A stretch of 64,000 nt of DNA, taken from contig QXWX01000015.1 in NCBI GenBank assembly GCA_009911175.1, forward strand, positions 32,051 to 96,050, written 5' to 3'. This DNA comes from Lachnospiraceae bacterium. GTDB lineage: Bacteria; Bacillota_A; Clostridia; Lachnospirales; Lachnospiraceae. How positions within the stretch are numbered: position 1 is the stretch's first letter; the number at the start of each line of letters is the position of its first letter. The translations under genes and the position numbers were made by a program. Below, one piece after another: positions 5,753 through 45,841 of this stretch. Below the pieces are notes generated by a model. The model was not told the DNA's origin. It saw nothing but the letters and a program-made list of their open reading frames with translations, and made no database searches.

Positions 5753-5810
5753 AAGAGAGCAATATAGAATCGTTTAAAATAGCAGTCCTATGAAAAGTGA
5801 AAAGTTTGTT

Positions 5811-5858
5811 AAAGGGATATCATTTATTGAGGAATCTTCTCAAATGTGATATCCTTTA
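5811..5858 (+). terminator. hairpin terminator after the SSB-like gene
   Basis: AAAGGGATATCA pairs with TGATATCCTTT, with a second inner stem TTGAG/CTCAA. The arms carry A- and T-rich flanks. It lies 60 bases past the stop codon. Confidence 0.7.
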
Positions 5859-5879
5859 TTTATGTCTGAGACCTTTTGG

Positions 5880-5916
5880 GTTACTATTCGCAGCCGGTCA
5901 GGCCGTGAATTGAGAC
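5880..5916. repeat. copy A of the dispersed 37-nt palindrome
   Basis: A 37-base stem-loop starting GTTACTATTCGC, with centre GCCGGTCAGGCC and ending GTGAATTGAGAC. It is followed at once by a run of six T, so this copy may also act as a terminator upstream of dapB. Its length and centre match copies at 35873 and 48236. Confidence 0.65.
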
Positions 5917-5962
5917 TTTTTTCGGGCGGCAGGCTCATATCATAGACGAGGAGGAGAACAAC

Positions 5963-6721
5963 ATGATAAATGTTTTGATGCATGGATGCAATGGGAGGAT
6001 GGGACAGATGATCACCGGCCTGGTGAAGGAGGATCCGGGAATCTCGATCGCGGCGGGAGTAGACACCTATCAGGAGGTGCAGAATCCCTATCCGGTCTTT
6101 GACACGATCGCAAAATGCGATGTCAGCGTGGATGTGGTGATTGACTTCTCTACGGCATCCGCGCTGGAGGACGTTCTGACGTACTGTGTGGAAAAGCAGA
6201 TCCCGGCGGTGCTCTGTTCCACAGGCTATTCGGAGGAGCAGCTGAAAAAAATTGCCGAGGCATCGGAAAAAACGGCGGTCCTGAAGTCCGCGAATATGTC
6301 TATGGGGATCAATCTGCTGCTGAAGCTTCTGAAGGACGCGGCAAAGGTGCTTGCCCCGGCAGGATATGACATGGAGCTGGTGGAACGCCATCATAACCAG
6401 AAGCTGGACGCCCCCAGCGGTACGGCGCTGGCGCTGGCGGATTCCATCAACGAAGCGCTGAACGGAGAATATCACTATGTATATGACAGAAGCCAGGCGC
6501 GTCAGAAGAGAGACGGGAAGGAGATCGGGATTTCCGCGGTCCGCGGCGGGACGATCGTGGGAGAGCATGAAGTGATCTTTGCAGGTGTGGACGAGGTGAT
6601 CGAGTTTAAGCATACCGCGTTTTCCAGAAGCGTTTTCGGCAAAGGAGCCGTGGAGGCTGCGAAATTCCTGGCGGGAAAGCCGGCAGGGATGTATGATATG
6701 AGCGACGTGATTCAGCTTTAG
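5963..6721 (+). CDS. dapB: 4-hydroxy-tetrahydrodipicolinate reductase
   Basis: NAD(P)H-dependent reduction in the lysine and diaminopimelate pathway, feeding peptidoglycan synthesis. The Rossmann motif MHGCNGRMGQ lies at the N-terminus. The signature ELVERHHNQKLDAPSGTA with the catalytic His pair and Lys lies near residues 138-156, and FKHTAFSRSVFGKGA near the C-terminus. The 252-aa length is normal. GGAGGAG precedes the ATG. It is not next to dapA, and I saw no lysine riboswitch upstream. It ends 46 bases before fbp. Confidence 0.97.
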   Translation: MINVLMHGCNGRMGQMITGLVKEDPGISIAAGVDTYQEVQNPYPVFDTIAKCDVSVDVVIDFSTASALEDVLTYCVEKQIPAVLCSTGYSEEQLKKIAEASEKTAVLKSANMSMGINLLLKLLKDAAKVLAPAGYDMELVERHHNQKLDAPSGTALALADSINEALNGEYHYVYDRSQARQKRDGKEIGISAVRGGTIVGEHEVIFAGVDEVIEFKHTAFSRSVFGKGAVEAAKFLAGKPAGMYDMSDVIQL

Positions 6722-6767
6722 GAGGGGCGGAACTATATTCCATAGGACGCAAATGAGGGACGTTTGA

Positions 6768-8723
6768 ATGAAGAATTTAGAGACAAGATATCTGGAACGG
6801 CTGTCGGATTTGTACCCAACGATCGCGGCGGCGTCTACGGAGATCATTAATTTACAGGCGATTTTAAATCTGCCGAAGGGGACGGAGCATTTTATTACGG
6901 ATGTGCACGGCGAGTACGAGGCATTTGCCCATGTGCTGAAGAACGGTTCCGGGTCTGTGCGCCGCAAGATTGATGAGGTCTTCGGCAATACATTGAGTAC
7001 AAAGGAAAAACGGTCTCTGGCGACGCTGATCTATTATCCGAGGGAGAAGATGCGGATCGTAAGGAAGACAGAGGATAATATGGAGGACTGGTACAAGGTC
7101 AACCTGTACCGCTTGATCGAGGTGAGCAAGCGGGCGGCGAGCAAGTATACCCGCTCCAAGGTGCGCAAAGCCCTGCCGAAGGATTTTGCCTATGTCATTG
7201 AGGAGCTGATCACGGAGAAGGCGGAGGTCAACGATAAGGAATCCTACTACAATGAGATCATCATGACGATCATCCGGATCGGCAGGGCGGAAGGGTTTAT
7301 TGCGGCGATCTCCTCCTTGATCCAGCGTCTGGTCGTGGATCACCTTCATATTGTGGGAGATATCTATGACCGGGGACCGGGACCGCATATCATCATGGAC
7401 AAGCTGATGAACTACCATTCCCTGGATATTCAGTGGGGGAATCATGATGTGCTGTGGATGGGGGCCGCGGCGGGGCAGCGGGGCTGTATTGCCAATGCCA
7501 TCCGGATCTGCGTGCGCTATGGGAATCTGGATATCCTGGAGGACGGGTACGGCATCAATCTCCTGCCGCTGGCGTCTTTTGCCATGCGTGTCTATGAGAC
7601 GGATCCCTGTACCTGCTTTACCCTGAAAGGACAGGACAATACGATCAGCAAAGCGGAGATGGAGATGAACCTGCGGATCCATAAGGCAATCTCCGTGATC
7701 CAGTTTAAGGTGGAGGGACAGATCGTCCAGCGGCAGAAGGGATTTCACATGGAGGACCGGGCACTGCTCCACAGGATTGATTACGAGAAAGGAACCATTA
7801 CCCTGAATGGAAAGGAATATGCTATGCTGGATATGAATTTCCCGACCATTGACCCGAAGGATCCGTATGCGCTGTCCGGGGAGGAAGAGGAAGTGATGGA
7901 ACGCCTGGAACGCGCGTTTCTGGGCTGCGAGAAGCTGCAGGAGCATATGCGGCTTCTGCTGACGAAGGGAAACCTCTACATGGTGCACAACAACAACCTG
8001 CTGTATCACGGATGCGTGCCGCTGAATGAGGACGGGAGCCTGCGGGAGGTGAGCCTTTTCGGACATACCTTCAAGGGGCGTTCCCTGTATGACGCGCTGG
8101 ACCGCTATGTGCGCAAGGGCTTCTTTGCTCTGGACGAGCAGGACCGGGAAAACGGAAAGGACATCATGTGGTATATCTGGCTGAGCCCGGATTCCCCGCT
8201 GTTCGGCAAGGACAAGATGGCTACCTTCGAGCGGTATTTCCTGGCGGAGAAGGAGACCCATGTGGAAAAGAAAAACCCATATTATAAGCTTCTCGAAAAG
8301 GAGGACGTGATCGACAATGTGATGCGGGAATTCGGTCTGTCGCCGGAGAGCGCTTACATCGTCAACGGCCATGTTCCGGTGAAGCGTAAAAATGGAGAAA
8401 GCCCGGTCAAATGCAACGGCAAAGTGATGGTCATTGACGGAGGATTTTCCAAGGCATACCAGAAGGAGACCGGGATCGCAGGCTATACTCTGATCTATAA
8501 TTCCTACGGGCTTCGCCTGGTGGCGCATGAGCCTTTCGAATCTACAGAGGCGGCTATCGAGCGGGAAAGCGATATCCACTCCGAGAGCGTGATCATCAAG
8601 CGGGTGATGGAACGGCGGCTGGTGGGTGATACGGACGCCGGCATGGACCTGAGAGAGCGGATCTCAGATCTGGAAGCGCTGCTCGCGGCGTACCGGAGCG
8701 GCGAGATCAAGGAGAAGCGTTAA
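6768..8723 (+). CDS. fbp: fructose-1,6-bisphosphatase class III
   Basis: This gluconeogenic phosphatase converts fructose 1,6-bisphosphate to fructose 6-phosphate. The 651-aa length and the calcineurin-like metal motifs FITDVHGEYEAF, VGDIYDRGPGPH, WGNHDVLWMGA and VNGHVPV identify the Firmicutes-type class III enzyme, unrelated in sequence to class I. GAGGGA sits 9 bases before ATG 6768. Together with pckA at 20.6 kb and the phosphoglycerate-mutase-like gene at 15.5 kb, the window holds several gluconeogenic or glycolytic-type genes, though not in one operon. Confidence 0.97.
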   Translation: MKNLETRYLERLSDLYPTIAAASTEIINLQAILNLPKGTEHFITDVHGEYEAFAHVLKNGSGSVRRKIDEVFGNTLSTKEKRSLATLIYYPREKMRIVRKTEDNMEDWYKVNLYRLIEVSKRAASKYTRSKVRKALPKDFAYVIEELITEKAEVNDKESYYNEIIMTIIRIGRAEGFIAAISSLIQRLVVDHLHIVGDIYDRGPGPHIIMDKLMNYHSLDIQWGNHDVLWMGAAAGQRGCIANAIRICVRYGNLDILEDGYGINLLPLASFAMRVYETDPCTCFTLKGQDNTISKAEMEMNLRIHKAISVIQFKVEGQIVQRQKGFHMEDRALLHRIDYEKGTITLNGKEYAMLDMNFPTIDPKDPYALSGEEEEVMERLERAFLGCEKLQEHMRLLLTKGNLYMVHNNNLLYHGCVPLNEDGSLREVSLFGHTFKGRSLYDALDRYVRKGFFALDEQDRENGKDIMWYIWLSPDSPLFGKDKMATFERYFLAEKETHVEKKNPYYKLLEKEDVIDNVMREFGLSPESAYIVNGHVPVKRKNGESPVKCNGKVMVIDGGFSKAYQKETGIAGYTLIYNSYGLRLVAHEPFESTEAAIERESDIHSESVIIKRVMERRLVGDTDAGMDLRERISDLEALLAAYRSGEIKEKR

Positions 8724-37152: not shown

Positions 37153-37198
37153 GGAGCCACCCTGCCTGAGATACATCCATCTCAGGCAGGGTGGCTCC
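37153..37198. terminator. 20-bp perfect hairpin between convergent genes
   Basis: GGAGCCACCCTGCCTGAGAT and its exact complement flank a 6-base loop. It overlaps the last codons of the PucR-type gene. There is no T-run in either direction, so it may stop transcription only in part. It separates the LspA-like transcript from the regulator gene. Confidence 0.6.
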
Positions 37199-38876
37199 TG
37201 TAATGTGAAAAGTAGTCAAACTGGTTCAGTAGAATCGTAAGCCGGAGCCCTATGATACTGTCCAGATTGGAAAAACTGACATGGATCAGGTGTTCGATTT
37301 TCGAAATTCGCGCATGCAGCGTATTGACGTGAATGAATAGTTTTTCGCTGGTCAGCTTATAGGAAAGCTCATTCGAAAAAAAAGATTCCAAGGTAAAATA
37401 GAGGTCGGAGGAATGCTTCCTGTCATATTCAAGGATCGGTCTCAAGTATAATTGGTACAACTCGTCCAGGTAGGCATCGTTGATGTTGCCGTTGCTGTCC
37501 GTAAACAGCTTGATGATCCCCAGCTCTCCATATATAAGCAGAGAAACGCTGTCCTGCCTGTTTCTGACATAATTCAAAGTAAATACGGCTTCATTATATG
37601 CCCTCCGCAGATCATAGTAGCGATGGAGGTCACTGATCCCCATAATAAAGTGGGAGGAATTAAAATAAGTGGACAGGGCATCATAGAGCTGCATGCCCAC
37701 ATCTTTTATGGATCGTACTTTATCATCAATCAGAATCACCCATTGTTCTTTATATAAAAACACAAGAAATTTATTATTGTAGAGCCTGATATGCTTTAAA
37801 TGATTGATAAATCCGGTCAATAGCTCCACGTTATTAAAGAGATTTAAGTCTTTGCGGCTGTTGATTAAGAGCAGATAATAGCTGTTGCTCAATTCTGTAT
37901 TCAGACTCAGGCTGATCTGCTTTTTGCGGGCACGGTCCTCGTGCGGCAGGTCAAGGAGACTTTCAAAAACAACACTTTTGAAGTAATAGTTTGATTTCTC
38001 AAATTCTGCCGTAATACTGATTTTCAGAGAATATATGGACATGATTGTTTCCAGTCGGCAGATCAGTTCAGGAGGAAGCGTCTCGGCAGATGAACGGTAT
38101 TTTACAATAATATAAAATGCAGAAGTAAATTTTGAAATATGGGAAGGGATGATAAAATACTGATCTTGTTCATTGACAGAATTGTCATGGTATTTATATC
38201 CGTTCATGGCAGTGCCGTTGAAATTTTCCCCGACAGGAATGCGCTGTAAAAGAGTACTGACTCTCAGATTCCGAAGCTCCGAATTCCAGTCGTTGTCATT
38301 AGAGCTGTCCTGAATCCGAAGATTATAGTCTGCAAGAGCGATCGTGATTTTTGTCAGGTTATGCACAATTTCGCAAAGGCTGTTCAGCAGGTAATTATTG
38401 GACAGATAGTTGATAATAGAATTCTGAAAATTCTGATTTTCTACAAGGTACTGTGTTTGATTATTGATGATCAGATTCTGGATCAGAACGATCATACTGC
38501 TCCATGGAACGTGATCTTCAATAAATATAAGAGGAATGTGATATTTGATCAACAACTCTTTTTGTTCCTCAGTGATATACTTTTCATACAGCTTGTGCGT
38601 GATCACGCCGGAAATTTTTTTCCGGTGCAGAGTATTGATAAAGCTCTCAGTGAGACAAGTACGCATGAAACGGCTTACAATCAGAATATCGCCTTCATGC
38701 AGCCAATTCTCTATATCCTCCACGTCCATGACGGTTGCACTTTTTATAATGTGCTCCAATCCCTCCTCAGTTATGATCATATCGCAGGAAACCATCGGTT
38801 TTGTATTGAGTAGATCTCGGATGGAAACCTCCTTAAAATCATTATGAAATGTGTAATTTAATAGATTTTCTTCCAT
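37182..38876 (-). CDS. PucR-family transcriptional regulator
   Basis: The N-terminal 120 residues form a PucR-type ligand-sensing domain (VSIRDLLNTKPM ... GDILIVSRFMR ... KISGVITHKLY). A middle GAF-like or linker region follows, and the C-terminal 60 residues hold the PucR helix-turn-helix (LTSEKLFIHVNTLHARISKIEHLI). Such proteins control purine, amino acid or polyamine genes in response to a metabolite. It faces away from the transporter/deiminase cluster across a 306-base AT-rich spacer and is the obvious candidate to control it. Length is 564 aa. AAGGTGGTGG lies before the ATG. Confidence 0.88.
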   Translation of the reverse strand: MEENLLNYTFHNDFKEVSIRDLLNTKPMVSCDMIITEEGLEHIIKSATVMDVEDIENWLHEGDILIVSRFMRTCLTESFINTLHRKKISGVITHKLYEKYITEEQKELLIKYHIPLIFIEDHVPWSSMIVLIQNLIINNQTQYLVENQNFQNSIINYLSNNYLLNSLCEIVHNLTKITIALADYNLRIQDSSNDNDWNSELRNLRVSTLLQRIPVGENFNGTAMNGYKYHDNSVNEQDQYFIIPSHISKFTSAFYIIVKYRSSAETLPPELICRLETIMSIYSLKISITAEFEKSNYYFKSVVFESLLDLPHEDRARKKQISLSLNTELSNSYYLLLINSRKDLNLFNNVELLTGFINHLKHIRLYNNKFLVFLYKEQWVILIDDKVRSIKDVGMQLYDALSTYFNSSHFIMGISDLHRYYDLRRAYNEAVFTLNYVRNRQDSVSLLIYGELGIIKLFTDSNGNINDAYLDELYQLYLRPILEYDRKHSSDLYFTLESFFSNELSYKLTSEKLFIHVNTLHARISKIEHLIHVSFSNLDSIIGLRLTILLNQFDYFSHYRSHPA

Positions 38877-39182
38877 TTAGCCACCACCTTATCTGCTGAT
38901 TATATCATTGTTTCCTGAATATGCAAAGATGATTATGGTAAATTTAGTTACTGAAAGATTAATTAAATTTAAATACAAGAAAAGCAAAATGTAAATTGGT
39001 GCAGAATATAAAAATAGGGGCAAAATTTTGTGGATGCATACAATAGAAAAAACAGAATTTAAAAATTATACTTTATGAAAAGACCATGATGGGATGCCTA
39101 TGGGTATACTATGAGAAGATGAAACGTTTTTGGTGGGGACGGCGCGGCGCGTAAATAACATGGATGTACAGGAGAAAAAAAT
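38877..39182. promoter_or_regulatory. divergent AT-rich control region of the deiminase cluster
   Basis: This 306-base gap separates the regulator from the YjiH-like gene. On the minus strand TTTGCA, 17 bases, TATAAT (38899-38927) is a good promoter for the regulator. The plus-strand promoter is less clear; TATACT at 39105-39110 is a candidate -10 box. An AT-rich stretch (GATTAATTAAATTTAAAT, about 38957-38974) lies between them. No ORF was seen. Confidence 0.55.
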
Positions 39183-40544
39183 ATGGAGAGTAAAGGCAAA
39201 AAAAGTTATAGCGGAGGGGAATTATGCAGATTTATCCTCCCGTCTCTTTTGGGGACGGTCATTTTCCTGCTGCCGATCAAATGGCATGGAAATATGACCA
39301 TATTAATCGGAATTATTACGGATGCACTGCAGGTATTGCTTGCGCCGGTGATTTCAGCTGTGGTGACAATTGCAATTGTCCTTTCAGCAGTGCTTTCTAC
39401 GATCAGAAAATTTTTGAAACCGGAATGGATTATAAAAAGTGAACGCCTGAACGCGATTTTTTCATGCAGTACCTTCTATTATATCTGCCGTCTTCTGGGA
39501 ATGGTATTTGCGGTGATGGTGTATTTTGAAATCGGCTTTGAAGCTGTGGTTTCCCCGGATACCGGCGGAACCATGCTGGGATTATTAAAGACGATTACCG
39601 TGTGGTTTATGGCAGCAGCTTTTTTGATTCCGCTGCTGATGGATTTCGGAATTATGGATTATGTCGGTACGCTGCTGCGCAGGGTGACCAGGCCGGTGTT
39701 CCATCTGCCGGGAAGAGCGGCGGTGGATCTGCTGGCATCCTGGCTGGGAAGCAATACGGTGGGTGCGGTGCTTACTATCAAGCAGTATGAGCGGGGATAT
39801 TATACGGCGAGAGAAGCCATTGTGATCGCATGTTGTTTTTCTGCCGTGTCGCTTCCATTCAGCCTTGTAATCGCCGCAATGATCGGTGTGGATCATTTGT
39901 TTATTCCCTTTTATCTGATCGTGACAATTACCGGCTTCGTAAGTGCGGCGCTCATGATCCGGATCCCGCCGCTTCGTCTGTATCCGGACGAGTTCTGTCC
40001 TGATGTAGGAAAACAGGTCAAGGAGGAGGAAATTGAAGGATATACCATGCATCAGTGGGCGTTGAAGCTGGCTGTAGAAAAGGCGGCTAAGGGACCGGGG
40101 GTGAGGCAGATCCTGCTTAGCGGGCTGAGTACCTTTATGGGGATCGTATTTCAGACGGCTCCGATCGTAATGGCTTTTGGTACGATTGCATGTATGGTGG
40201 AGGCATATACACCGATTTTTAAATGGCTTTCCGTTCCGTTCGGATATTATCTGCGGTTATTTGGGATTGAGGATGCATTTGCGGTGGCGCCTGCGGCAAT
40301 CATTGGATTTATTGACATGTTTTTGCCGTCTGTGCTGCTTGCAGGAGTGGAGTCGGTGAAAACCAGATTTATACTGGGGGCACTGTCATTGGTTCAGATC
40401 GTATATATTACGGAGATCGGATCGATTATGATTTCCTCGAAAGTTCCGGTCAAGTTGAAAGATCTGTGCTTTATATTTATAGAAAAGACGCTGATCGCAC
40501 TGCCGATAATTGTGCTGCTGACAAATTTATTTGGTGTATTTTAA
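39183..40544 (+). CDS. YjiH-like membrane protein (nucleoside-recognition/GATE family)
   Basis: A polytopic inner-membrane protein with about eleven hydrophobic segments and the duplicated gate-domain pattern (LLASWLGSNTVGAVLTIKQYERGYYTAREAI in the first half, AVAPAAIIGFIDMFLPSVL in the second). Family members are proposed transporters or channels, with no firm substrate. It opens the cluster, with AGGAG before the ATG, and is followed by a second transporter after 254 bases. Uptake of the guanidino substrate or exchange of a product is a reasonable guess. Confidence 0.82.
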   Translation: MESKGKKSYSGGELCRFILPSLLGTVIFLLPIKWHGNMTILIGIITDALQVLLAPVISAVVTIAIVLSAVLSTIRKFLKPEWIIKSERLNAIFSCSTFYYICRLLGMVFAVMVYFEIGFEAVVSPDTGGTMLGLLKTITVWFMAAAFLIPLLMDFGIMDYVGTLLRRVTRPVFHLPGRAAVDLLASWLGSNTVGAVLTIKQYERGYYTAREAIVIACCFSAVSLPFSLVIAAMIGVDHLFIPFYLIVTITGFVSAALMIRIPPLRLYPDEFCPDVGKQVKEEEIEGYTMHQWALKLAVEKAAKGPGVRQILLSGLSTFMGIVFQTAPIVMAFGTIACMVEAYTPIFKWLSVPFGYYLRLFGIEDAFAVAPAAIIGFIDMFLPSVLLAGVESVKTRFILGALSLVQIVYITEIGSIMISSKVPVKLKDLCFIFIEKTLIALPIIVLLTNLFGVF

Positions 40545-40798
40545 AGAATGAAGGGGCTGCCTGCTGACAGTCTCTTTTTTCACGTCTGTTTGGAACATGC
40601 TGTTTTGAAGATAACGTTTTTATCATCAGGAGGCAGAAAAGCTGATAGCAGGGCGCTTTTGGATTGGTGATTCATACAAATCTTTTGAACTGACTTTGTG
40701 GGTTCAGACAATATATTTCGGAAAATATTTTTACTAAAATAAAATACACAAGGAAAAAACAGAAAATACAGACAAATGAAAAGGAAGGTGAGTCAACA

Positions 40799-42316
40799 AT
40801 GGGAGAAACTCAAAAAAAGAAAAAAGAAAAGAAGGGTCTGAATTCCTATGTAGTTATATTTGTTGTAATTGCATTCATGGCAATTCTGACCTGGTTCATT
40901 CCGGGAGGGGAATATGAATTGGATGAGGCCGGATATGCGATTGCCGGGACTTACAAAGAGCTTCCAGCCAATCCGCAGGGGCTTTGGGACGTGATCACTG
41001 CGCCGATCGTAGGTATGGTCGGAAATGGCGCGGTGAGCGGGGCGATTTCCATTTCCCTTTACATCATGCTTTTCGGGAGCTTCCTGAAGATGATGGAAGA
41101 GACAGGTGTCATCGGATTTGCGCTGACATCCGTGGCAAAAAAATTTCAGAAAAAGCCTTATATACTGATAACAATCCTTGTATTTATTCTGTCATTCCTT
41201 GGTACGTCACAGGGAGCATATGAAGAATGTGCCATTTATGTATCCTTGTTCCTGCCGATTTTCCTGGCGATGGGGATGGATACGATTACGGTCGTGATGA
41301 TTTCTGTATTCGGTACGCAGATTGGATGTGCCGCATCAGCGATCAATCCGTTTTCCACAGGGATTGCTTCGGATATTGCAGGAATTTCTTTTGGAGACGG
41401 TATTATTCCAAGACTGATTCTGTTCTTCGTACTGTCGGCAGTTGTTTCCGTGCTGATCAGCTGGTATGCGAAGACAGTGCAGTCTCATCCGGAAAAATCC
41501 GTGCAGTTCTACCGGCGGGATCAGGATATGAAGGAATTTTCCAATTCCGAAGAGGCGGGTGATACGGCAAGTGATGTGAAGCATATGAAGGGGCTTGTGA
41601 TCGTGTTTGTCCTGACCTTCGTGATCATGCTCCTGGCATTGTTCCCATGGACATCCATTAATGAGCATTTTACAATTTTTGCGTCAATTGCGGAATGGGT
41701 GAATACGACACCGGTTATCAGCACCGTGATCGGAAGCAGCGTGGTGGCATTCGGAGACTGGTATTTTACGGAATTGACAGCATTGATGCTTGTGATGTGC
41801 CTGATTGCGGGATTTATGGCAGGGTATGACCTGGATAAGATCATTAATATTATAATCAAGGGTGCGGCGGAGCTTGTGTCAACGGCCCTGATCGTTCCCA
41901 TGGCACGCGGTATCCAGGTGATCATGACATCCGGAAATATTACATCCACCATCCTGCATGCTACAGAGGTGACACTGGGATCCCTGCCGGTCGTGATATT
42001 CGTAATTCTGGCATTTGTGATCTATCTGATCTTTGCATGCTTCCTTCCCAGTTCTACAGGGCTTGCAGGGGCAACCATATCGGTCATGGTTCCTCTGGGG
42101 ACATTTGCAGGGGTACCGCCGTATGTGATGATCATTATTTATAACTTTGCGCTTGGCATTGCCAAGATGTTTACACCGACTTCGATCGCGGTTATGACAT
42201 GTACCCAGTACGCGAAGATTGACTATACATCCTGGATCAAGGCAGTATGGAAACCATTGGCTGTGATCTTCCTGGTGTGCCTCGCATTTGCGTTGGGATT
42301 GACCTTGATTGGTTAA
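40799..42316 (+). CDS. YfcC-family transporter (ArcD/dicarboxylate superfamily)
   Basis: A 505-aa permease with about twelve hydrophobic segments. WFIPGGEYELDEAG just after the first segment, GTSQGAYEECAIYVSLFLPIFLAMGMD, CAASAINPFSTGIASDIAG and FFACFLPSSTGLAGATISVM-type blocks mark the YfcC family, relatives of arginine/ornithine exchangers. Next to a deiminase, carbamoyltransferase and carbamate kinase it most likely exchanges the substrate for the amine or amino acid product. A Lys-rich N-terminus (TQKKKKEKKG) stays inside. AAGGTGAG precedes the ATG. Confidence 0.88.
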   Translation: MGETQKKKKEKKGLNSYVVIFVVIAFMAILTWFIPGGEYELDEAGYAIAGTYKELPANPQGLWDVITAPIVGMVGNGAVSGAISISLYIMLFGSFLKMMEETGVIGFALTSVAKKFQKKPYILITILVFILSFLGTSQGAYEECAIYVSLFLPIFLAMGMDTITVVMISVFGTQIGCAASAINPFSTGIASDIAGISFGDGIIPRLILFFVLSAVVSVLISWYAKTVQSHPEKSVQFYRRDQDMKEFSNSEEAGDTASDVKHMKGLVIVFVLTFVIMLLALFPWTSINEHFTIFASIAEWVNTTPVISTVIGSSVVAFGDWYFTELTALMLVMCLIAGFMAGYDLDKIINIIIKGAAELVSTALIVPMARGIQVIMTSGNITSTILHATEVTLGSLPVVIFVILAFVIYLIFACFLPSSTGLAGATISVMVPLGTFAGVPPYVMIIIYNFALGIAKMFTPTSIAVMTCTQYAKIDYTSWIKAVWKPLAVIFLVCLAFALGLTLIG

Positions 42317-42410
42317 AGCGGATATGAGAAGGAGTCGTGTAGACAAACTAAGGTATTCAAACTGGTAACAAAGTGGTAAGAAGCATTCAATAATAAAGGA
42401 GAAAACAAAA

Positions 42411-43532
42411 ATGGCAATTTCACTGAAAGGAAGAAACTTTTTCGCATTGGAGGATTTTACACCGGAGGAGATCCGTTACCTTTTGGATCTTGCAATCCAG
42501 CTGAAAAAGGAAAGTAAGGAACACATCAAACATCAGGACTATATCGGGGAGGACTTTCTGTTATTATTTGAAATGAATTCTACACGAACCCGCTGCGCGT
42601 TTGAGACTTCCGCAAATGATCTGGGAATGGGAACCACATTTCTTTCAAACTCGCATTTCGGAAATACGGAGACGATCAAAGACTCCATGCGTGTATTCAG
42701 CGAGATGTACAGTGCCATCGGCTACCGGGGCGCTAAGCACAGCACGCTGCTTGAAATGGCAAAGGACAGTACGATCCCGATCATCAACGGATACACAGAT
42801 CATCAGCATCCGACCCAGATGCTGGCGGACGCGATGACACTGGACGAGGTTTGGGGACGGGAGAACTATAAGGGGAAAACATTGTGCTTTATCGGGCGGG
42901 GCGGTGCCGTGAACTCCTTCTCATATGGCGTAATGTGTGCTATGCTTGGTATGAACTTTACCTATATTACCTCTTATATGGAAATGGACGAGGCTCTGGA
43001 AGGTCTGACAGCAGCAGAAAAGGCTACGTTCCGCAAATTTGTGCCCGAAGGAGTAGTATCTCCGAACTGGGATACCAAGATGGACGCGAGAAAGCGCAAA
43101 ATTGTAGAAGAACTGTTCGCGAAATACAGCCCGGAATGTAAATTTATTGAAACGGATGATATCAACGCGATCAAGGGCGTGGATGTGATCACAACAGAGA
43201 ACTGGGGATTCTTTACAGACCCTGTGGAGACATGGCTTCCTGGCATTGTGCGTTTCCGTCCGTACCAGGTGAACAGAGAGCTTCTGGAACGTTCGGAAAA
43301 TCCGGATTGTATTGTCATCCATATGCTGCCGTCCACACACAATATGGATCACGCGTCCGGACAAAAGCTGCTGTCCGTAATAGAGGATCCGGAACTGCGT
43401 GAATTTTTAAAGGGCGGAATGGAAGTGACAGATGAAGTCTTTGAACAGAACGCAAAATATATTTTCCAGGAAGCAGGCAACCGAAAGCACACGATCAAAG
43501 CGGTGATCAAAGCTGTATTAGGAGAAAGATGA
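42411..43532 (+). CDS. carbamoyltransferase of the ornithine/putrescine type, variant active site
   Basis: In catabolic use this enzyme splits a ureido compound with phosphate to carbamoyl phosphate and an amine. The carbamoyl-phosphate site is intact: STRTR at 57-61 and HPTQ at 133-136. The next signature, HCLP in ornithine and putrescine enzymes, reads HMLPS (304-308). The usual side-chain loop is replaced by ENWGFFTDPVETWLPG, and there is an extra segment at about 195-235. The 373-aa length exceeds the usual 310-340. It sits between the YfcC transporter and the deiminase. Substrate may be N-carbamoylputrescine or another ureido compound. Confidence 0.88.
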   Translation: MAISLKGRNFFALEDFTPEEIRYLLDLAIQLKKESKEHIKHQDYIGEDFLLLFEMNSTRTRCAFETSANDLGMGTTFLSNSHFGNTETIKDSMRVFSEMYSAIGYRGAKHSTLLEMAKDSTIPIINGYTDHQHPTQMLADAMTLDEVWGRENYKGKTLCFIGRGGAVNSFSYGVMCAMLGMNFTYITSYMEMDEALEGLTAAEKATFRKFVPEGVVSPNWDTKMDARKRKIVEELFAKYSPECKFIETDDINAIKGVDVITTENWGFFTDPVETWLPGIVRFRPYQVNRELLERSENPDCIVIHMLPSTHNMDHASGQKLLSVIEDPELREFLKGGMEVTDEVFEQNAKYIFQEAGNRKHTIKAVIKAVLGER

Positions 43533-43598
43533 TATATAGCATGCAACTTGTAATTTTGCGAAGTTAAAGCGATAGACCTTAAGAAGGAGGAACCATTT

Positions 43599-44870
43599 AT
43601 GGATATTTTAAACTACAGAGGGCTGGATTATGAAGATTTTCGCGTACCGGGGGAATTTGAACCCCAGGAGGCCGTGATCCTGGGATGGCCGGAAATGGCG
43701 GAATGTATAAAAGGGTACAGTCTGCACAAAGCATTTGCACAGTTGATCAAGATTATTGTGGAACAGGCAGAGGGTGTGACCGTCTATGTGAACTGTCCGG
43801 ATCAGAAGCGTGCGGAAAGCTGCAGGAAGGCTTTGACAGAGGAAGAAGTGGAGATTGAAAAGGTTGTGATCACGACCTACCCGGACGGCAGTAACTGGAC
43901 AAGGGACTACGGCCCGGATATTCTGGTGGACGATAAGGGCCATCGTCTCCTTGCCAATCCGAGATTTAACATGTATGGTCAGAGTACCATTGATAGTGTT
44001 ACTTCTACATTATGCGCAAAGTTCGCGCCCCACCTCGCGTTGGAAATCGGATGCCGGGATTTTGTGAATTCCACCCTGATTACAGAAGGCGGAGACAAGG
44101 AATTCAACGGCAACGGTGTGCTCATGGCATTGCGTGATACGGAGGTGACGAAGCGTAATCCACATATGTCAACCGAAGAGGTAGAAGAAGAGCTGAAGAG
44201 ATTGTTCCACTTGAAAAAAGTGCTCTGGCTGGAGAAAGGTGTGTTCGACGACGAGCTGACCACCTCAGGGGTATTAGATTATGTGGATGGAGAGCCAGTT
44301 TACCGTTCCTCATCCGCAAATGGGCACATGGATGAATTTGCAAGGTTTGTAGGACCCAATACGATCCTTCTCACCGAAATTACGGAAGAAGAGGCATCAA
44401 ACCTGAACTCCCACCGGATTACAAAGGAGCGCTGTGATGCCGCTTATGAAGTTTTAAAAAATGCAACAGACGCGGAAGGAAATCCGTTTAAGATCGTGCG
44501 TATGCCGGCTCCGGAGCCATTCTATGTATATTCTAAACCGGGAGACTGGATCAATGATACATGGTCCTGCCGTTACGGGGAGGGAAATGAATTCCTGGAT
44601 GACGGAACACCGATGCCGACAGGGGATATGATCATGCAGCCGGCTTTGAGTTATATTAACTTTTTGATCCTGAACAATATCGTGATCGCTCAGAATTACT
44701 GGGAAGAAGGACGTCCGGAAAGCATTAAAAAACGGGATGAACAGGCACTGGCTGTGCTGCGGGAGGTGTTCCCGGACAGAAAGATCGTGCCGTTTGTCAG
44801 TACCGCGCTGAATATCCGGGGCGGCGGAGTGCACTGCGCGACGAAGAATGTACCGAGGGCATCGAAATAG
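43599..44870 (+). CDS. agmatine-deiminase-family (PAD_porph) enzyme, enlarged
   Basis: A pentein-fold amidinotransferase/deiminase that hydrolyses a guanidino group to a ureido group plus ammonia. Expected active-site residues are visible: WTRDYGPD (Asp103), EGGD (Glu163), NGHMDEFARF (His243, Asp245) and the catalytic Cys413 in RGGGVHCATKNVP, 11 residues from the end. Classical agmatine deiminases are about 365 aa with GGGNIHC; here the length is 423 aa with insertions at about 170-230 and 315-350. The substrate could be agmatine or another guanidino compound. GGAGG lies before the ATG. Confidence 0.88.
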   Translation: MDILNYRGLDYEDFRVPGEFEPQEAVILGWPEMAECIKGYSLHKAFAQLIKIIVEQAEGVTVYVNCPDQKRAESCRKALTEEEVEIEKVVITTYPDGSNWTRDYGPDILVDDKGHRLLANPRFNMYGQSTIDSVTSTLCAKFAPHLALEIGCRDFVNSTLITEGGDKEFNGNGVLMALRDTEVTKRNPHMSTEEVEEELKRLFHLKKVLWLEKGVFDDELTTSGVLDYVDGEPVYRSSSANGHMDEFARFVGPNTILLTEITEEEASNLNSHRITKERCDAAYEVLKNATDAEGNPFKIVRMPAPEPFYVYSKPGDWINDTWSCRYGEGNEFLDDGTPMPTGDMIMQPALSYINFLILNNIVIAQNYWEEGRPESIKKRDEQALAVLREVFPDRKIVPFVSTALNIRGGGVHCATKNVPRASK

Positions 44871-44899
44871 GAGTTCTTTTCATAGGAAGAGGTGAAAAC

Positions 44900-45841
44900 A
44901 TGCCGAAAATTGTAATTGCTCTGGGCGGGAACGCGCTCCAGTCCAAGGACAGCAAACCGACAGCAGAAGGACAGCTGGAAGTGGTCAGGCAGACCTGCGA
45001 AAGGCTGGCGGAGATCAGCGCCCAGGGATATGAGATGAGTATTGTCCATGGAAACGGACCTCAGGTCGGGAGAATCCTTCTGGCCTCTGAGGCCGCAAAG
45101 GATCTGACACCTGCAATGCCGTTTGATGTATGCGGAGCCATGAGCCAGGGATATATCGGGTATCATATCCAACAGGCATTAAAATACGCGCTCAGTATTC
45201 GGAATAAGCATTGCCCGGTGGTGACAGTCGCGACGCAGATGGTGGTTGACAGAGACGACAGGGCTTTTGAAAATCCTGTAAAACCAATCGGTCCGTTTTA
45301 TACGGAGGAAGAGGCAAAGAAGCTGGAAGAGGAAAATGGATATACGATGAAAGAGGATGCGGGCCGGGGATGGCGCAGAGTGGTTGCGTCTCCGATCCCC
45401 AGAAAGATCGTAGAGATAGAGGCAATTAAAAATCTGTGGAAATCTACAATTGTGATTTCCTGCGGAGGAGGCGGCATTCCGGTAGTCGAGAATCCGGACG
45501 GGACATTGGAAGGGGTGGCTGCCGTCATTGATAAGGATCATGCGGCTGAGCTGCTTGCGGAGCAGGTGGAAGCGGATATTCTGATGATTCTGACAGAAGT
45601 GGAAAAGGCCGCGGTCAACTGGGGCAGGCCGAATCAGAAAAATCTGGATACCATGAGTCTGAAAGAAGCGGCGCAGTATGTGGAAGAGGGGCAATTTGCT
45701 CCGGGAAGTATGCTTCCGAAGGTGGAAGCCTGCATGAAGTTTGTACGTCAGAATCCACAGAAAAAAGCGATTATCACCAGCCTTGACAAAGCGCTGGAAG
45801 CATTGGAGGGGAAGACTGGAACAGTGATTACATTTGCATAA
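44900..45841 (+). CDS. arcC: carbamate kinase
   Basis: Transfers phosphate from carbamoyl phosphate to ADP, giving ATP, CO2 and ammonia; this is the energy-yielding step of deiminase pathways. Motifs IVIALGGNALQ, IVHGNGPQVGRIL, AMSQGYIGYHIQQAL, VISCGGGGIPV, VIDKDHAAELLA and GSMLPKVEA are all present. Length is 313 aa, normal. It starts 29 bases after the deiminase gene. It completes the cluster, which then ends in a run of hairpins. Confidence 0.97.
   Translation: MPKIVIALGGNALQSKDSKPTAEGQLEVVRQTCERLAEISAQGYEMSIVHGNGPQVGRILLASEAAKDLTPAMPFDVCGAMSQGYIGYHIQQALKYALSIRNKHCPVVTVATQMVVDRDDRAFENPVKPIGPFYTEEEAKKLEEENGYTMKEDAGRGWRRVVASPIPRKIVEIEAIKNLWKSTIVISCGGGGIPVVENPDGTLEGVAAVIDKDHAAELLAEQVEADILMILTEVEKAAVNWGRPNQKNLDTMSLKEAAQYVEEGQFAPGSMLPKVEACMKFVRQNPQKKAIITSLDKALEALEGKTGTVITFA

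What the first reader, a model, noticed from the sequence alone, without database searches (positions are those of the whole stretch)
37182..45841. Non-canonical deiminase-carbamoyltransferase-carbamate kinase cluster under a PucR-type regulator
The gene order is PucR-type regulator (divergent), YjiH-like, YfcC-like, carbamoyltransferase, agmatine-deiminase-family enzyme, carbamate kinase. This is a full ATP-yielding guanidino-degradation route. However, the deiminase is about 60 residues longer than classical agmatine deiminase, the carbamoyltransferase lacks the HCLP motif, and the regulator belongs to a purine/amine-sensing family. Together these suggest a substrate other than agmatine or arginine. 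The chemistry is established for the families; the new substrate is inference.
Basis: partly seen in the sequence, partly recalled or inferred. Interest (0 to 1): 0.72.

Follow-up and report, generated by a model that had tools for sequence, protein, structure and literature searches.

The report
Unassigned guanidino-compound energy operon in gut bacteria
A gut bacterium carries a complete ATP-making pathway built like the known arginine and agmatine pathways, but its two key enzymes belong to separate, uncharacterised families that probably act on a different guanidine-containing compound, not yet identified.

Summary
The operon is real: divergent PucR-type regulator, Gate/YjiH-like protein, YfcC-type carrier, carbamoyltransferase (CT), PF04371 deiminase (DIM), carbamate kinase. 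DIM and CT miss the curated cut-offs for agmatine deiminase, putrescine CT and ornithine CT; the kinase passes. DIM forms a clade apart from agmatine deiminases (100/100); CT sits beside ornithine CTs, not putrescine CTs (AU p=0.0002). Catalytic residues are kept, but all five ornithine-contact residues are replaced. CT lies within 1.5 kb of DIM in 11 of 18 loci and the pair co-diverges (r=0.95). Of 10 genomes tested that hold the pair, 8 also hold a curated ArcA or AguA, so another substrate is likely. New: the YfcC-CT gap is a deletion scar of a D-2-hydroxyacid dehydrogenase gene, intact in two relatives; a kindred dehydrogenase sits in a sibling operon with an unrelated deiminase in the closest held genome. 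Most likely an ATP-yielding deiminase pathway for an unassigned guanidino compound, possibly a hydroxy- or keto-acid. The substrate is inference; no assay exists.

The parts
37182..38876 (-). PucR-type transcriptional regulator, 564 aa, divergent from the operon
   Evidence: PF07905 45 bits (cut-off 33.5), PF13556 44 bits (27); relative at 50% identity beside the same module in Enterococcus L003
39183..40544 (+). Gate / YjiH-like membrane protein, 453 aa
   Evidence: PF07670 52 bits (cut-off 29.6)
40664..40680 (+). candidate regulator site TTGGTGATTCATACAAA upstream of the YfcC gene (weak)
   Evidence: one hit in the window, exact (with 3 mismatches allowed, 29 of 100 shuffles also give a hit); the 15-base core lies upstream of both Gate and YfcC in L002 and of YfcC in L004, and in none of the other 80 loci held then
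40799..42316 (+). YfcC-type (DcuC family) carrier, 505 aa; presumed importer or exchanger of substrate and product
   Evidence: PF03606 277 bits (23); YfcC model 184.5 bits, below cut-off 500
42317..42410 (+). deletion scar of a D-2-hydroxyacid dehydrogenase gene; its last ten codons, stop included, survive in frame at 42350-42379
   Evidence: gap bases 10-32 match the first 23 and bases 33-94 the last 62 bases of the 1075-base gap in L001, which holds the intact gene (5787-6782); L004 has the same scar
42411..43532 (+). carbamoyltransferase CT1, 373 aa; STRT at 57-60, HPTQ 133-136, HMLP 304-307, TENWGFFT loop 262-269
43599..44870 (+). PF04371 guanidino deiminase DIM1, 423 aa; D103, H243, D245 and C413 invariant in the 21-row alignment
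44900..45841 (+). carbamate kinase, 313 aa (ATP-forming step)
   Evidence: TIGR00746 arcC 415.9 bits, over cut-off 358.25

Best explanation
An energy-conserving deiminase operon for a guanidino compound other than agmatine and, probably, other than L-arginine. The carrier brings the compound in. DIM hydrolyses its guanidino group to a ureido group plus ammonia through the conserved Cys413. CT phosphorolyses the ureido compound to an amine plus carbamoyl phosphate. Carbamate kinase makes ATP, CO2 and ammonia. The PucR-type protein is the presumed inducer sensor. Shown: gene set, families, catalytic residues, linkage, phylogeny, loss of ornithine and putrescine signatures, an ancestral dehydrogenase gene. 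Inferred: reaction order, direction, transport role, regulation, substrate. The ancestral D-2-hydroxyacid dehydrogenase points to a substrate or product that is, or becomes, a 2-hydroxy or 2-oxo acid.
For: Kinase passes its curated model, DIM and CT pass none. DIM clade of 39 rows against 14 AguA-side rows at 100/100; CT1+CT2 clade of 26 rows at 100/100 beside ornithine CTs; CT with putrescine CTs as one clade rejected, AU p=0.000185. Ornithine contacts K53, N167, D231, S235, M236 (named in PMC4581275, passages) become M55, V167, E263, F267, F268, and HCLP becomes HMLP. CT within 1.5 kb of DIM in 11 of 18 loci; matched divergence r=0.95 over 18 pairs, 0 of 2000 permutations. Of 14 genomes searched, curated AguA in at least 7 and ArcA in 7, either in 11; of the 10 with the CT1-DIM pair, either in 8. 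Dehydrogenase gene intact in L001 and L002, scar in window and L004. Sibling operon with kindred dehydrogenase, kinase, YfcC and Gate genes but a different deiminase in the closest held genome.
Against: No assay or expression data for any CT1 or DIM1 member. The nearest CT fold is ornithine CT, Asp to Glu at 263 is conservative, and relaxed specificity is known (putrescine CT uses ornithine poorly, PMC3282769 passages). 7 of 18 loci have DIM without CT1, so DIM alone may have other roles. No kinase is found in the stretches held of L001, L007 and L008. Three of the 14 genomes show no ArcA or AguA over a cut-off (G006, G010, G011; G011 scores 482.4 against 489.1 for ArcA), where this operon could serve a classical substrate. 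CT1 lost the lysine that pairs with ornithine's carboxylate, which does not fit a simple arginine-like hydroxy acid.
Confidence: 0.75

Rival explanations
1. A diverged duplicate of the agmatine or arginine deiminase pathway that still uses agmatine/putrescine or arginine/ornithine under different regulation.
For: Same reaction chemistry; CT fold nearest to ornithine CT; a carrier that reads like an APC antiporter lies downstream of DIM in Enorma L008 (read by eye).
Against: All five ornithine contacts changed and the putrescine signatures absent; agmatine-deiminase motifs WPxRxDNW and EGGSxHVD absent; coexistence with curated AguA or ArcA in 11 of 14 genomes searched.
Confidence: 0.12
2. The pathway consumes the 2-hydroxy or 2-oxo acid analogue of arginine (argininic acid or 2-oxoarginine), with the dehydrogenase interconverting the acid. 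A specific form of the best explanation.
For: Dehydrogenase ancestral to this operon. The same dehydrogenase family adjoins deiminase-b in 14 of the 14 Eggerthellaceae genomes that have it (138 searched). In 397 Lachnospiraceae it has 12 places in 10 genomes: a HisC-family aminotransferase adjoins it in 6 and a deiminase-b relative is in view in 5, one of them weak. The CT of the sibling module keeps the carboxylate-binding Lys and the SMG but lacks the Asp that holds the alpha-amino group.
Against: CT1 itself shows the opposite pattern: acid kept (Glu263), Lys and SMG lost. The gene was deleted in the window lineage, so it is not essential there. The two Enterococcus relatives have only a different dehydrogenase subfamily (about 30% identity), downstream of the core operon. 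In 7 of the 12 Lachnospiraceae places no deiminase-b is in view, and the aminotransferases pass the histidinol-phosphate transaminase model.
Confidence: 0.15
3. A nitrogen-scavenging, detoxifying or ammonia-producing system in which ATP formation is incidental.
For: DIM occurs alone in several lineages, beside a divergent MerR-family gene in L012 and a relative of it in L020.
Against: In the window and in 8 of the 11 CT1 loci a carbamate kinase is linked.
Confidence: 0.1

Closest known systems
Agmatine deiminase pathway (aguA, putrescine carbamoyltransferase, carbamate kinase; Enterococcus faecalis)
   Same: Three-step logic; deiminase of the same Pfam family with the catalytic Cys, His and Asp; carbamate kinase
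   Different: DIM 25-30% identical to the 14 AguA-side proteins, 164 bits against cut-off 381.8; CT not of the putrescine clade; YfcC and Gate instead of the APC-type carrier seen in L035, L051 and L052
Arginine deiminase pathway (arcA, arcB, arcC)
   Same: CT derives from the ornithine CT branch; kinase passes arcC; YfcC-type carriers are recalled as arginine/ornithine exchangers in streptococci (recall, no call)
   Different: Deiminase is PF04371, not ADI; ornithine-binding residues all replaced
Eggerthella lenta extra 'agmatine deiminase' operon not induced by agmatine (PMC10234575, section 10 read)
   Same: Authors suggest it may serve a related compound; the genome I take for this strain also holds a DIM2-CT2 pair of this clade
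   Different: Judged by its locus tags (my inference) the operon named in the paper is the AguA-like one at 2.57 Mb (L040), not DIM2-CT2; DIM2 and CT2 are 39-45% and 44-48% identical to the window pair
Sibling module: DDAH/ADI-type deiminase-b, CT of ornithine type, D-2-hydroxyacid dehydrogenase, kinase, YfcC, Gate (L066)
   Same: Kindred kinase (77%), carrier (52-53%) and Gate (37%) partners, PucR-type HTH gene beside it; same dehydrogenase family as the deleted gene
   Different: Deiminase from another branch of the guanidino-modifying superfamily (PF19420/PF02274); CT keeps Lys and SMG

Membership tests
Agmatine deiminase (TIGR03380) | curated score cut-off 381.8 | tested here: not met
   164 bits; seven AguA from the DIM genomes and one from G464 score 551-594; L033 scores 420 and the AguA-like L054 206
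Agmatine deiminase (TIGR03380) | placement in the AguA clade | tested here: not met
   100/100 split
Agmatine deiminase (TIGR03380) | activity on agmatine | not testable with these tools
   needs purified enzyme
PF04371 guanidino-group deiminases | Pfam gathering score 25 and catalytic Asp, His, Cys | tested here: met
   214 bits; D103, H243, D245, C413 invariant in 21 rows (roles of these residues recalled); fold nearest 1xkn, 1vkp, 6nic, 2jer
Putrescine carbamoyltransferase (TIGR04384) | cut-off 500 | tested here: not met
   169.5 bits
Putrescine carbamoyltransferase (TIGR04384) | HCLP, 230-loop (Y/W)(G/W)(V/L/I)X, Gln two before STRT | tested here: not met
   HMLP, GFFT and Met at these columns (signatures from passages of PMC3282769 and PMC4581275)
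Ornithine carbamoyltransferase (TIGR00658) | cut-off 280.85 | tested here: not met
   237.2 bits
Ornithine carbamoyltransferase (TIGR00658) | DxxxSMG loop, Lys two before STRT, HCLP | tested here: not met
   ENWGFFT, Met55, HMLP
Transcarbamylase superfamily | SxRT, HPxQ and HxLP motifs and the common fold | tested here: met
   motifs at 57-60, 133-136, 304-307; monomer model matches OTC with TM about 0.8; trimer not tested; the third position of Fx(E/K/N/D/A/Q)xSxRT is Met, outside the published set
Carbamate kinase (TIGR00746) | cut-off 358.25 | tested here: met
   415.9 bits
YfcC basic amino acid antiporter (NF008611) | cut-off 500 | tested here: not met
   184.5 bits; member of the wider DcuC family

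The most novel reading that the evidence does not exclude
A previously undescribed fermentation of gut bacteria: a new deiminase and a new carbamoyltransferase specificity that make ATP from a guanidino hydroxy- or keto-acid (such as argininic acid), redox-coupled through a D-2-hydroxyacid dehydrogenase, with two non-orthologous enzyme sets (PF04371-DIM/CT1 and ADI/DDAH-type deiminase-b/OTC-b) serving the same or closely similar compounds under PucR-type control.
Probability: 0.18. Interest if true: 0.82.

Novelty: new variant of a known kind. Interest (0 to 1): 0.58.

Why it matters
Guanidino compounds are host, diet and uraemic metabolites (argininic acid and alpha-keto-delta-guanidinovaleric acid are listed as uraemic retention solutes in PMC8745165, passages), and the ATP-yielding deiminase routes known to me cover arginine and agmatine. 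A linked, co-diverging deiminase/transcarbamylase pair with a rebuilt amine pocket defines a testable further substrate class and a new transcarbamylase specificity. Members are labelled 'agmatine deiminase' or 'ornithine carbamoyltransferase' where databases name them (names seen), so metabolic models of gut species that carry them may be wrong.

Tried and rejected
Agmatine and arginine as substrates were tested by trees, curated models, residue mapping and genome coexistence and judged unlikely. Purine-derived substrates suggested by PucR found no support: in other lineages the module has TetR-like regulators. A knotted CT (YgeW type) was rejected: YgeW model 38 bits against 500, fold nearest ornithine CT. 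A conserved operator was sought: only a 15-base motif in three clusters counting the window, too weak to claim. A Bacillus DIM (P0088) against plasmids gave 36 records, all under 60% identity; the 20 listed are at 26-28% and, where annotated, agmatine deiminases. Literature: nine searches showed no title or abstract on this gene pair; only four papers were opened (PMC4581275, PMC10234575, PMC3282769, PMC8745165), and subscription journals are mostly not held. The D-2-hydroxyacid dehydrogenases near the Enterococcus operons are a different subfamily (about 30% identity) and were not counted as support. Neighbours of Bacteroidota loci L013, L014 and L016 were called but not studied. Selections: alignments A1 and A2 hold 21 and 18 sequences (20 of the 120 listed hits, 17 of the 120, plus the window); trees hold 53 deiminases and 47 CTs that I chose from these and from the loci; genome coexistence was run on 14 of the 18 loci's genomes (L001, L013, L014, L016 not given). 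Gene calls came from simple scripts and may miss or mis-start genes; TetR-like, APC and some HisC labels were read by eye.
Full report
Observation. The closest named genome is Schaedlerella arabinosiphila DSM 106076 (L004, DIM 99% identical). The window's own assembly is not held; the nearest held genome, G001, shares 29% of the window's sampled 31-letter words. G001 and G004 (the genome of L004) give the same hits at the same coordinates, so I treat them as one. Statements on 'its genome' refer to that relative.

Membership. Against NCBIfam the kinase passes arcC (415.9 over 358.25). The deiminase scores 164 against 381.8 for agmatine deiminase. The CT scores 237.2 against 280.85 for ornithine CT and 169.5 against 500 for putrescine CT. 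As controls, the AguA and PTC of a separate operon of G004 score 551 and 534.5, over both cut-offs. Of seven further AguA candidates scanned six pass and one (L054, G010) does not; three of three further PTC candidates pass. In L017 the AguA passes (594) and the PTC candidate does not (430 against 500).

Phylogeny. In a tree of 53 chosen deiminases the 39 DIM rows are split from 14 AguA-side rows with support 100/100; in a tree of 47 chosen CTs the 26 CT1/CT2 rows form one clade at 100/100 next to ornithine CTs. Rebuilt without YgeW and the two CT3 rows (44 rows), CT plus five ornithine CTs is one side of a branch at 99/98.9, while CT plus seven putrescine CTs as one clade is rejected, AU p=0.000185. 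The L017 putrescine-type and L059 ornithine-type rows, on long branches, and the two OTC-b rows were left out of the tested groups.

Active sites. DIM keeps the catalytic Asp, His-x-Asp and Cys (D103, H243, D245, C413, invariant in 21 rows; their roles are recalled from the family) but lacks the WPxRxDNW and EGGSxHVD motifs of AguA and has its own RSxSANGHxDE and (S/T)EGGDKEFN motifs, both with variants, most of all in DIM2. The CT keeps STRT, HPTQ and HxLP. The ornithine contacts named in PMC4581275 (passages) are changed: Lys53 to Met55, Asn167 to Val167, Asp231 to Glu263, Ser235 to Phe267, Met236 to Phe268; and HCLP is HMLP. The HxLP residue itself varies in the clade: Gln in L015, Glu in 4 of 8 CT2 rows. 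Arg163 and the TENWGFFT loop are invariant in the 18 CT1 rows of A2, but Arg163 is not kept in CT2. Models: CT mean pLDDT 87 with ornithine CTs at ranks 1-32 and putrescine CT first at rank 33; DIM mean pLDDT 90, best match 1xkn (deposited as putative peptidyl-arginine deiminase), then agmatine deiminases, and Porphyromonas peptidylarginine deiminase from rank 24.

Unit conservation. Of 18 loci fetched, CT1 adjoins DIM or is one gene away (within 1.5 kb) in 11 (L001-L009, L011, L015); in L017 DIM is near a genuine AguA and a PTC-like gene; six have DIM without a CT in view. In the 11, a kinase is in view in eight, one of them cut by the contig end (L006). Regulator and carrier vary: PucR with YfcC in Lachnospiraceae and Enterococcus, TetR-like with YfcC in Slackia and Rubneribacter, TetR-like with a carrier of the PF03553 group (checked in L011) in Enorma, two Oscillospiraceae and a Eubacteriaceae locus. 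A second paralogue pair DIM2-CT2, often with an MFS carrier, occurs in Eggerthellaceae. Identity matrices of 18 DIM-CT pairs correlate at 0.95, none of 2000 permutations reaching that; shared descent of hosts also contributes to this. At strict cut-offs DIM is rare in Lachnospiraceae (2 of 397 genomes at E 1e-60) and frequent in Eggerthellaceae (20 of 138 genomes at 440 bits or more, counted).

Coexistence. Among 14 genomes behind these loci (of 18), ArcA is over its cut-off in 7; AguA passes in 7 (G003, G004, G005, G007, G009, G014, G015; not all candidates were scanned); either in 11; both in G007, G014 and G015. Counting only the 10 genomes that hold the CT1-DIM pair (G002-G009, G011, G013), either in 8. 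Ornithine CT over its cut-off is in 13 of 14, but some of those hits are putrescine CTs. This argues for a different substrate; it is not proof.

A lost gene. L001 and L002 carry a D-2-hydroxyacid dehydrogenase (PF02826 and PF00389) between YfcC and CT. In the window and L004 this gap is 94-95 bases: 23 bases match the start and 62 (63 in L004) the end of the L001 gap, including the last ten codons of the dehydrogenase in frame. The scar shows deletion in the window lineage rather than insertion elsewhere. A relative of that dehydrogenase (57-58% identity) lies in a second operon of G004 with an ornithine-type CT, a DDAH/ADI-type deiminase-b under all NCBIfam cut-offs, a 77% identical kinase, a YfcC carrier and a Gate protein, next to a PucR-type HTH gene. 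In 138 Eggerthellaceae the dehydrogenase (E 1e-60, 49-55% identity) is in 14 genomes and deiminase-b (E 1e-40) in 15; the 14 are shared and in each the two genes are within about 0.5 kb; G006 has a second dehydrogenase copy some 8 kb away. In Lachnospiraceae there are 12 dehydrogenase places in 10 of 397 genomes: a deiminase-b relative is in view in 5, one of them weak (28%) and one the G004 operon itself, and an aminotransferase of the HisC family lies beside it in 6 (five of these scanned, all over the hisC cut-off); flanks of only 1.5 kb were seen. This suggests oxo- or hydroxy-acid chemistry around a guanidino compound; the CT of the sibling module, which keeps the Lys and SMG but lacks the Asp for the alpha-amino group, fits that. 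CT1 does not show the same pattern, so carrying this idea over to the window's operon is uncertain.

Literature. In Eggerthella lenta the authors report two complete and two partial 'agmatine deiminase' operons, one of the complete ones not responding to agmatine, and propose a related compound (PMC10234575; section 10 read; its supplements not seen). The genome I take for that strain (by its length, recalled) holds DIM2-CT2-MFS at 528 kb, two AguA-type operons near 850 kb and one near 2.57 Mb. Nine text searches showed no title or abstract describing this pair.

Verdict. A real, conserved further branch of the deiminase-carbamoyltransferase-kinase theme, with an uncharacterised substrate. It works like the agmatine and arginine pathways; its deiminase and CT are not members of those enzyme families by the tests above.

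Noticed in passing
window 42317-42410; L001 5787-6782; L002 5797-6795: Deletion scar of a D-2-hydroxyacid dehydrogenase between the carrier and CT genes; intact in two relatives.
   Followed up: yes
L066 7142-14150: Sibling operon with deiminase-b (283 aa), ornithine-type CT, dehydrogenase, kinase, YfcC and Gate next to a PucR-type HTH gene; substrate also unknown.
   Followed up: partly
L025-L032, L034, L038, L041: Second paralogue pair DIM2-CT2, in several of these loci beside an MFS carrier or a LuxR-type membrane regulator, in Eggerthellaceae including the genome taken for E. lenta.
   Followed up: partly
L033 2400-6749; L042 5194-7565: A further CT type (CT3, HYLP/HFLP) next to an AguA-like deiminase and a cytosine/purine-type permease in Rubneribacter, and next to a divergent DIM in E. 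guodeyinii.
   Followed up: no
L018 8001-17139: Solitary DIM of Anaerovorax followed by genes that look like aconitase X, a 2-hydroxyacid dehydrogenase, an opine dehydrogenase-like protein, a racemase-like protein and an NhaC-like carrier (read by eye).
   Followed up: no
L005 1777-4810: The PucR gene of Enterococcus sp. PF1-24 is split by an ORF that reads like a transposase.
   Followed up: no
L012 7046-7870; L020 2828-3691: MerR-family gene (Pfam-checked in L012) divergent from a solitary DIM; could mark a detoxifying role for solitary DIMs.
   Followed up: no
L036 5781-11215: Rubneribacter locus with an ornithine-type CT, YfcC-type carrier and two arginine-deiminase-like genes, one on the opposite strand and much diverged (257 bits to arcA).
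   Followed up: no
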